Below are positions 15,927-30,349 of a stretch of 43,750 nucleotides of DNA, piece by piece. Below the pieces are notes generated by a model. The model was not told the DNA's origin and did no database searches. It saw only the letters and a list, made by a program, of their open reading frames with translations. Source of the stretch: Candidatus Methylomirabilis sp. (lineage in GTDB: Bacteria > Patescibacteriota > DYJS01); NCBI GenBank assembly GCA_020723005.1, contig DYJS01000007.1, positions 5,624 to 49,373 of the forward strand. Reading direction: 5' to 3'. Numbering within the stretch: the first letter of the stretch is position 1; each line of letters opens with the position of its first letter. The position numbers were made by a program, and so were the translations under genes.

Positions 15927-16009
15927 TTTTATTTTTTTCCAAAATTAAGTTAAAAAAATTTAAGCAGAAAGCAAAAATTTATTTAAATTCTTGACCTCTC
16001 TCTTCTAAA

Positions 16010-28826: not shown

Positions 28827-30080
28827 TTACGGCAAAAAACTTTTTATCCAACTTATTATCCCATTTGATCTTTTTGATTTTCCAAGCGTTCCAATTTTAG
28901 GATTGTTAGAAAAGCCTGTATGTGCAAAATCTGTTATAGAATCAAAATACCAATTTAAAAGTCCAAGATTTGTTGAAAATTTTGGATCGGAAACTTGATC
29001 AGTTAAGCCAGAAAGATTTTTTGTTTGAAAAAGTATAGCTGATGTGTTTAAAACTCTTCTCGCAACTGATCCAATTCCTGTAAGATTTGATCCACCTCCT
29101 GTCAAAATTATTCCAGCTGGAAGAATAAAATCTTTTTGTGGAGTTTTTGTTGATTGAAGGACGAAACTAAAAATTTCTCGTATTCTTGCATTTATAATTT
29201 GAGAGAGATATTTTTTTGAAATTGTTCTGTTTTCGTATGGGTTAATCTCGGAAAGTGAAAATGTATCGTCATCAGAAATTTGCGTTGGATCTGCATTTCC
29301 AAAACGAATTTTAATTTTCTCTGCATCAGAATATGAAACTTTTAAACCAATAACAATATCTTGGGTGATAAATTCTGAACCAATTGGAATAAACGAAGTG
29401 TGAATAATTTCTCCTTCTTCAAAAATTGCAATGCTTGTTAAATCTTTCCCAATATCAACAATCATGCTGCCAAGCTCTTTGTTTTGAGAAGGAATTGAAT
29501 AATAACCATTTGCAACAATGGAAACTACATCAAGATCAGATTTTATTCCAACCTTTTCAAGGCTTTTATGCATATTTTTTATCACAGGTGTTATTCCAAC
29601 CAAAACATGATTTTCAACTTCCAATTTCATTCCACTCATTCCAATCGGGTTTCTGATTCCAAGCTGACCATCAATTGCAAAAGTTCTTGGCAGAACATGC
29701 AAGATTTCATTTCCTTGCTGAAAGTTTAATTTTTTTGAACTTTCAACAGCACGAGCAACATCTTCAAAATTAATTTCATCATCAATGCTAGAAATTGAAA
29801 CTTGACCATATGAGTTTACGGATTGAAGAAATCCACCATTTAAACCTAAAACAACCTCTCTGATTGAAATACCGCTTGTTTGTTCTGCTTCAGAAATTGC
29901 TTTTGAAATTGATTCTGATGCATGTTCAATATCTATGACTATTCCTTTTTTGATTCCATGAGATTCATTTGTTCCAATTCCTAAAATATCCAAAGTTTGA
30001 TTTTTCGATTTTTGTCCAACAACAACAGAAGTAGTGCTACTACCCAAATTTAAACTAGCTATTGTTTTGGATCTAGACAA
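28827..30080 (-). CDS. ftsA: Cell division protein FtsA
   Basis: Actin-like protein that tethers FtsZ to the membrane. Phosphate-1 region ASLNLGSSTTSVVVG, the SHS2-inserted 1C domain (GIKKGIVIDIEHASESISKAISEAEQTSG..), phosphate-2 SMIVDIGKDLTSIAIF, and adenosine motif AGIILTGGGSNLTGI. The C-terminal tip NGIISWIKSFLP is the expected amphipathic membrane-targeting helix. 417 aa, normal. The start is TTG (30080). ftsZ is not adjacent; the genes 3' and 5' are a CBS protein and bS21, so the usual division cluster is dispersed here. Confidence 0.92.
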   Translation of the reverse strand: MSRSKTIASLNLGSSTTSVVVGQKSKNQTLDILGIGTNESHGIKKGIVIDIEHASESISKAISEAEQTSGISIREVVLGLNGGFLQSVNSYGQVSISSIDDEINFEDVARAVESSKKLNFQQGNEILHVLPRTFAIDGQLGIRNPIGMSGMKLEVENHVLVGITPVIKNMHKSLEKVGIKSDLDVVSIVANGYYSIPSQNKELGSMIVDIGKDLTSIAIFEEGEIIHTSFIPIGSEFITQDIVIGLKVSYSDAEKIKIRFGNADPTQISDDDTFSLSEINPYENRTISKKYLSQIINARIREIFSFVLQSTKTPQKDFILPAGIILTGGGSNLTGIGSVARRVLNTSAILFQTKNLSGLTDQVSDPKFSTNLGLLNWYFDSITDFAHTGFSNNPKIGTLGKSKRSNGIISWIKSFLP

Positions 30081-30133: not shown

Positions 30134-30337
30134 TTAGACTTTCAACCAAACTTTTTGATTTCTTTTCTTTGCATTTGCTTTAAAAATTGCTTCTCGTTTT
30201 CTATGAACTCTAGATAAAATCTTTGTTCTTCTGTTGTTTGCAGATTTTGTCTGAATATTGCTCGAAATAACTTGATTTCTAAAACTACGAAGCAATGCTT
30301 CTAACGATTGGTTATCGTTTCTTTCAACTTTTGGCAT
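30134..30337 (-). CDS. rpsU: Small ribosomal subunit protein bS21
   Basis: 67 aa, basic. N-terminus MPKVERNDNQSLEALLRSFRNQVISSNI follows the bS21 pattern (E-x2-SLE-x-LR-F-x3-V-x2-SGI). The C-terminal half is Arg/Lys-rich (RVHRKREAIFKANAKKRNQK). It is longer at the C-terminus than some bS21 proteins. bS21 sits near the 3' end of 16S rRNA on the platform, by the anti-Shine-Dalgarno sequence. Unlike its neighbours it has a clear Shine-Dalgarno sequence (see the separate entry). It is 54 bases upstream of ftsA on the same strand and may be co-transcribed. Confidence 0.85.
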   Translation of the reverse strand: MPKVERNDNQSLEALLRSFRNQVISSNIQTKSANNRRTKILSRVHRKREAIFKANAKKRNQKVWLKV

Positions 30338-30344
30338 AGAAAAT

Positions 30345-30349
30345 ACCTC
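30345..30349 (-). promoter_or_regulatory. Shine-Dalgarno GAGGT of the bS21 gene
   Basis: On the minus strand the sequence reads AAAAGAGGTATTTTCT before ATG: GAGGT with seven bases to the start codon, textbook position. I looked upstream of the other starts in the window and found no comparable site, so this is an outlier. Confidence 0.8.

What the first reader, a model, noticed from the sequence alone, without database searches (positions are those of the whole stretch)
30134..30349. bS21 is the only gene here with a proper Shine-Dalgarno sequence
Seen: GAGGT sits seven bases before the bS21 ATG. I compared the bases upstream of the other starts (for example clpC, typA, trxB, the RSH gene, slipin, cca, the LCP gene, PAP2) and found no GGAG/GAGG at useful spacing. 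Known: in some Bacteroidetes the ribosome hides its anti-Shine-Dalgarno sequence using bS21 and neighbouring proteins, and the bS21 mRNA itself keeps a strong Shine-Dalgarno sequence, so ribosomes lacking bS21 translate it. Inference: this unrelated-looking, SD-poor genome may have the same autoregulatory circuit, which would be a notable parallel if it is a patescibacterium.
Basis: partly seen in the sequence, partly recalled or inferred. Interest (0 to 1): 0.75.

Follow-up and report, generated by a model that had tools for sequence, protein, structure and literature searches.

The report
Strong ribosome-binding site before bS21 gene
The gene for ribosomal protein bS21 carries an unusually long ribosome-binding sequence matched to this bacterium's own 16S rRNA end, one of a handful in its genome, and the same gene has the strongest such sequence in most sampled relatives, which suggests that a self-regulating circuit known only from Bacteroidota may be far more widespread.

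Summary
GAGGT lies 7 nt before the rpsU (bS21) ATG and is part of GAGGTATT(TT). That gives 8 Watson-Crick pairs plus 2 G-U pairs with this organism's variant 16S tail (GGAAUACCUCCUUU), -9.8 to -12.0 kcal/mol. No other window gene comes close.

Genome-wide, "only" is wrong. Among 298 sampled genes rpsU ties for 7th. rplX, rplR, rpsC, rplW and two secreted-protein genes are stronger, so this ribosome does use Shine-Dalgarno (SD) pairing. By the published Bacteroidota criterion (< -13 kcal/mol and strongest r-protein gene) this genome fails.

In 55 genomes (42 families), rpsU reaches -12.5 kcal/mol or stronger in 36, against 17 of 671 neighbouring genes. It outranks all neighbours and S10-cluster genes in 19 of 20 genomes tested, including SD-poor ones. 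Cyanobacteria show the same (18 of 28 loci). I found no report of this outside Bacteroidota in the searchable library. Several lineages (e.g. Saccharibacteria) lack it.

Most likely, bS21-deficient ribosomes preferentially translate rpsU. Anti-SD sequestration by bS21/bS18/bS6, as in Flavobacterium, is untested, and the pocket tyrosine is generally absent.

The parts
30134..30337 (-). rpsU, bS21, 67 aa, ATG start, stands alone or first in its unit; the ORF downstream on the same strand (28827-30080) looks like ftsA
   Evidence: Translation. Not found by Pfam or NCBIfam, but found first of 1,530 ORFs (E = 9.7e-8) by a profile of relatives' bS21 that excludes it. The ftsA label is my reading of the sequence, not a tool result.
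30342..30349 (-). Extended Shine-Dalgarno GAGGTATT: 8 Watson-Crick pairs with the 16S tail AAUACCUC
   Evidence: Sequence; duplex energies; own 16S tail
30340..30341 (-). TT: possible two G-U pairs with 16S GG, lengthening the helix to 10 bp; these tail bases lie near helix 45 and may not be free
   Evidence: accessibility is not known
30338..30344 (-). The seven bases between GAGGT and the ATG (overlap the extended pairing)

Best explanation
The rpsU leader is a regulatory Shine-Dalgarno element. Its extended complementarity to the 16S 3' tail, reaching into the lineage-variable 5' part of the tail, makes rpsU one of the few mRNAs whose initiation depends on a free and strongly pairing anti-SD. 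30S subunits that lack bS21 (late assembly, or loss of this loosely held protein) have a more available tail, or depend more on mRNA-rRNA pairing, and so translate rpsU preferentially. The bS21 made completes the subunits and damps further synthesis. Shown here: the pairing, its fit to the organism's own tail, the SD-poverty of the genome, and the outlier status of rpsU across the phylum. Inferred: any effect of bS21 occupancy on rpsU translation. In this genome the element is weaker and less exclusive than in most relatives.
For: Pairing and tail; SD-poor genome with rpsU one of three strong SDs among 222 unit-first genes. Phylum: rpsU -12.5 kcal/mol or stronger in 36 of 55 genomes against 17 of 671 neighbours; strongest of all neighbours and S10-cluster genes in 19 of 20 genomes, e.g. 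G063 with rpsU -16.6 and a median of -0.8; rpsR does not share this. rpsU helices reach the 5' part of the tail in 92% against 35% of other SD genes. Both genomes with an AATACC tail and an rpsU SD (G000, G014) carry GGTATT. Same signature in the proven case (PMC9976891).
Against: [quoted passage not shown] Six genomes, at least five with a confirmed TCACC tail, have GGTGTT, which fits another tail better. Saccharibacteria, a GAACACC-tail clade, part of f18 and f8 have no rpsU SD. Tyr54 of the Flavobacterium pocket is usually Arg in relatives. No same-class genome is held to test conservation. No expression data.
Confidence: 0.42

Rival explanations
1. Ordinary strong ribosome-binding site: rpsU is a short, highly expressed gene standing first in its unit, and its SD simply secures high initiation, as for rplX, rplR, rpsC and some secreted proteins in this genome. 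No feedback through bS21.
For: Other r-protein and secreted-protein genes of this genome have equal or stronger SDs.
Against: Does not explain why rpsU rather than other r-protein genes is the outlier in 19 of 20 relatives, why it exceeds what is needed (down to about -20 kcal/mol), or why SD-poor genomes keep it there alone (G063, G036, G011).
Confidence: 0.34
2. Flavobacterium-type circuit in full: bS21, bS18 and bS6 hide the 16S tail in replete ribosomes, and only bS21-less ribosomes use SDs.
For: SD-poor genome; aromatic Phe52 aligned with Tyr54 of F. johnsoniae bS21; Bacteroidia-like AATACC tail.
Against: Several operon-internal r-protein genes here have strong SDs, hard to reconcile with a generally hidden anti-SD, although some Bacteroidia orders also have r-protein SDs (PMC9976891). 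One residue is weak evidence; most relatives have Arg there. The pocket was not modelled.
Confidence: 0.12
3. Bootstrapping without sequestration: bS21 helps initiation, so bS21-less ribosomes initiate poorly, and a very long SD lets them still make bS21.
For: bS21 is involved in initiation in E. coli and sits close to the anti-SD (stated in PMC9578407); the rpsU signature also occurs in Cyanobacteria and in Patescibacteria that use SDs freely.
Against: No direct data in these organisms. It differs from the best explanation only in why the deficient ribosome prefers rpsU.
Confidence: 0.08
4. Chance: a purine-rich stretch of suitable spacing in an AT-rich leader.
For: About 0.5% of non-coding 20-mers reach this energy.
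Against: Correct spacing, fit to the variant tail, and the same gene selected in 36 of 55 relatives.
Confidence: 0.04

Closest known systems
rpsU (bS21) autoregulation by bS21-lacking ribosomes, Flavobacterium johnsoniae and other Bacteroidota (McNutt et al. 2023, PMC9976891; Jha et al. 2021, cited there, not held)
   Same: SD-poor genome, intact CCUCC in 16S, extended SD on rpsU that fits the lineage's own 16S tail; in most sampled relatives rpsU is the clear winner, as in that study.
   Different: [quoted passage not shown] Relatives mostly lack the Tyr54-like residue. Different phylum. No functional test.
Natural covariation of anti-SD and rpsU SD in Chryseobacterium-type Flavobacteriales (described in PMC9976891)
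   Same: The rpsU SD follows a variant 16S tail: GGTATT with AATACC in G000 and G014.
   Different: Here the change lies 5' of the CCUCC core, in two genomes only, with counter-examples (GGTGTT with a TCACC tail).
bS21 homologues governing gene expression in Francisella tularensis (PMC9578407)
   Same: bS21 occupancy changes which genes are expressed.
   Different: Works through alternative bS21 homologues in an SD-using organism, not through an rpsU SD.

Membership tests
Bacteroidota-type rpsU autoregulation | 16S keeps the anti-SD core CCUCC | tested here: met
   Own 16S ends GGATGGAATACCTCCTTT
Bacteroidota-type rpsU autoregulation | SDs rare in the genome | tested here: met
   10 of 298 sampled genes at -9.5 or stronger, 2 in mock windows
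Bacteroidota-type rpsU autoregulation | rpsU pairing stronger than -13 kcal/mol | tested here: not met
   -9.8 to -12.0 in the window's genome, with ViennaRNA duplex energies rather than the authors' free_scan; reached by many relatives
Bacteroidota-type rpsU autoregulation | rpsU is the strongest SD among r-protein genes | tested here: not met
   rplX, rplR, rpsC and rplW are stronger here; in 20 relatives with a strong rpsU SD, rpsU beats the S10-cluster and neighbouring genes in 19
Bacteroidota-type rpsU autoregulation | bS21 Tyr54 or equivalent in the pocket | tested here: inconclusive
   Phe52 aligns with Tyr54 of 7jil chain z; among relatives the column is mostly Arg
Bacteroidota-type rpsU autoregulation | Anti-SD sequestered by bS21, bS18 and bS6 | not testable with these tools
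   Needs a ribosome structure; own bS18 is divergent (34.6 bits against 60 to 90 in relatives)
Bacteroidota-type rpsU autoregulation | bS21-lacking ribosomes translate rpsU preferentially | not testable with these tools
   Needs translation assays
Bacteroidota-type rpsU autoregulation | rpsU SD covaries with the 16S tail | tested here: inconclusive
   G000 and G014 follow their AATACC tail; six GGTGTT genomes do not follow a TCACC tail
Ribosomal protein bS21 | Sequence match to the family | tested here: met
   E = 9.7e-8, first of 1,530 ORFs, with a profile of relatives that excludes it; Pfam PF01165 itself does not match

The most novel reading that the evidence does not exclude
Translation of rpsU through an exceptionally long SD, read preferentially by bS21-deficient ribosomes, is a widespread and possibly ancient feedback circuit present in Patescibacteria and Cyanobacteria as well as Bacteroidota, and does not depend on the Bacteroidia anti-SD pocket.
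Probability: 0.33. Interest if true: 0.8.

Novelty: new variant of a known kind. Interest (0 to 1): 0.6.

Why it matters
The 2023 Flavobacterium study presents its circuit, in which ribosomes missing one protein read one mRNA, as an unambiguous bacterial example of specialised ribosomes, and it rests on a pocket whose contacts are conserved in Bacteroidia. If the same mRNA signature marks rpsU as the top outlier across most sampled Patescibacteria families and in Cyanobacteria, the circuit may be general and separable from that pocket, and it becomes testable in tractable cyanobacteria.

Tried and rejected
Pfam and NCBIfam for the window's bS21: no match. bS21 alignment as a scan query in named genomes: not conserved enough. 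Viral contigs for relatives of the window's bS21: none. Structured leader: folding not better than shuffles (z = -0.5). Covariation in family f18 (ATTACC tail): its rpsU SDs are AAAGGAGGTA close to the start, a difference that AT content can explain, so not counted. GAGAGAGAGAAGTCAAG hits scored as SDs before TTG starts belong to a recurrent intergenic motif and are not SDs. First parse of genome-search loci took minus-strand hits in the wrong orientation and was redone. Coverage limit: the control genes come from a simple hexamer gene caller, so some starts are wrong; controls were therefore also allowed their best start.

Full report
Observation. The bS21 gene is on the minus strand at 30134-30337. 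The gene is divergent: Pfam and NCBIfam do not recognise it. A profile of relatives' bS21 proteins that excludes it finds it first among 1,530 ORFs of the genome sample at E = 9.7e-8.

The 16S rRNA of the same genome lies on contig C5 and ends GGATGGAATACCTCCTTT. The anti-SD core is intact but the tail differs from the common GGATCACCTCC. Against its own tail the leader forms GAGGUAUU as eight Watson-Crick pairs, plus two G-U pairs. The energy is -9.8 kcal/mol with a 13-nt tail starting at A, -11.1 when the preceding G is included, and -12.0 with a longer tail.

Is it unique? In the window, yes: no other gene comes near. In the genome, no. I took stretches covering about 360 kb, called genes with a simple hexamer model, and scored each start. 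Of 298 genes, 10 reach -9.5 kcal/mol against 2 in mock windows 40 nt further upstream. The genome is therefore SD-poor, but rpsU is tied for 7th. Stronger are a secreted protein, rplX, rplR, another secreted protein, rpsC and rplW (gene names in the S10 cluster are my reading of the sequences and their order). The ribosomal ones are all internal to the S10-spc cluster. Among 222 genes that appear first in their unit, rpsU is one of three. SD pairing is therefore probably in use in this organism. Published criteria for rpsU autoregulation in Bacteroidota (below -13 kcal/mol and strongest r-protein gene; PMC9976891) are not met here.

The phylum. No genome of the same class turned up; all relatives drawn are of the same phylum only. 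The own 16S is about 75% identical at best to those with long coverage. The nearest are G078 and G063, then G014 and a named Peregrinibacteria record, which fits Patescibacteria (inference). I located rpsU in relatives, read 16S tails by pattern, fetched up to 20 kb around rpsU for 55 genomes from 42 families, and scored rpsU and its neighbours by the same rule, letting every control gene choose its best start. For 15 of the 55 the 16S tail was not read and the common tail was assumed.

rpsU reaches -12.5 kcal/mol in 36 genomes of 29 families. Of 671 neighbour genes 17 do. rpsU ranks first in 36 genomes. In 20 genomes, chosen because their rpsU SD is strong, I added the S10-spc ribosomal protein cluster: rpsU is the strongest of all genes examined in 19. 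G063, one of the nearest by 16S, has a median of -0.8 and rpsU at -16.6. The bS18 gene in 30 genomes ranges from 0 to -13.7. rpsU helices run further into the 5' part of the tail than those of other SD genes (92% against 35% with at least two such pairs; Fisher p = 3e-10, nominal, because genomes are not independent). I found no report of this pattern in Patescibacteria in the paper library; that library holds only open-licence papers.

Covariation. Two sampled genomes have both an AATACC tail and an rpsU SD, this one and G014. Both have GGTATT and pair about 4 kcal/mol better with their own tail than with TCACC, while most TCACC genomes have GGTGA. Against this, six genomes carry GGTGTT, at least five of them with a confirmed TCACC tail. 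Two Saccharibacteria-type genomes and G387 with AATACC tails have no rpsU SD, and Peregrinibacteria G097 has a weak one. I count covariation as suggestive only.

Lineages without the element include Saccharibacteria, a clade with GAACACC tails, part of family f18, and f8. The element must therefore have been lost or gained repeatedly.

Outside the phylum. Pedobacter, as expected for Bacteroidota, has GAGGAGGTATTTT (-17.3). As a control I took the phylum of a Microcoleus genome: 18 of 28 rpsU loci (Cyanobacteria and presumed allies) reach -12.5 or stronger, against at most 1 of 62 neighbour genes. The common tail was assumed there. E. coli has only -8.5. I did not look further.

Mechanism. The proven Flavobacterium model needs a hidden anti-SD. 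Here Phe52 of bS21 aligns with the tail-contacting Tyr54 of 7jil chain z, an aromatic residue almost absent from relatives, which mostly have Arg. So in the phylum at large the signature does not track that residue. I therefore favour a broader form: bS21-deficient 30S subunits, whether because the tail is freer or because they depend more on pairing, prefer the long rpsU SD, and bS21 thereby regulates its own supply. The pairing and the outlier status are shown; the feedback is inferred. An ordinary strong SD remains a serious rival for this particular genome, where rpsU is not the strongest.

Noticed in passing
L348-L373 (Cyanobacteria and presumed allies): rpsU has a conserved extended SD (AAAGGTGGTGA in small genomes, GGGGGTGA or GAGGAGGTGA in others), -12.5 kcal/mol or stronger in 18 of 28 loci against at most 1 of 62 neighbour genes.
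   Followed up: partly
L047:3726-3956 (own rpsR): The bS18 of this genome is very divergent, 34.6 bits against PF01084 where 29 relatives score about 60 to 90, and it has lost the CxxC region.
   Followed up: no
window 15991-16003; L032:15012, L036:16539, L038:16047, L050:7902: TTGAC(C/T)TCTCTCT recurs between genes in this genome and in no other fetched genome; it looks like a -35 box with a CT-rich spacer, possibly a lineage-specific promoter.
   Followed up: partly
L090, L091, L106, L119, L082, L319: Six genomes have rpsU leaders with GGTGTT, which would pair better with an ACACC tail, although at least five have a TCACC tail.
   Followed up: no
L034:18606-19247; L050:3117-4534: Secreted or surface-protein genes with the strongest SDs outside the r-protein cluster (-13.8, -12.9 and -11.1 kcal/mol).
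   Followed up: no
L083-L110 (e.g. L085, L087, L098, L099, L110) and L356-L358: Many of the strongest rpsU SDs stand before TTG or GTG start codons, in Patescibacteria and Cyanobacteria alike; a weak start behind a very strong SD would fit pairing-dependent control.
   Followed up: no
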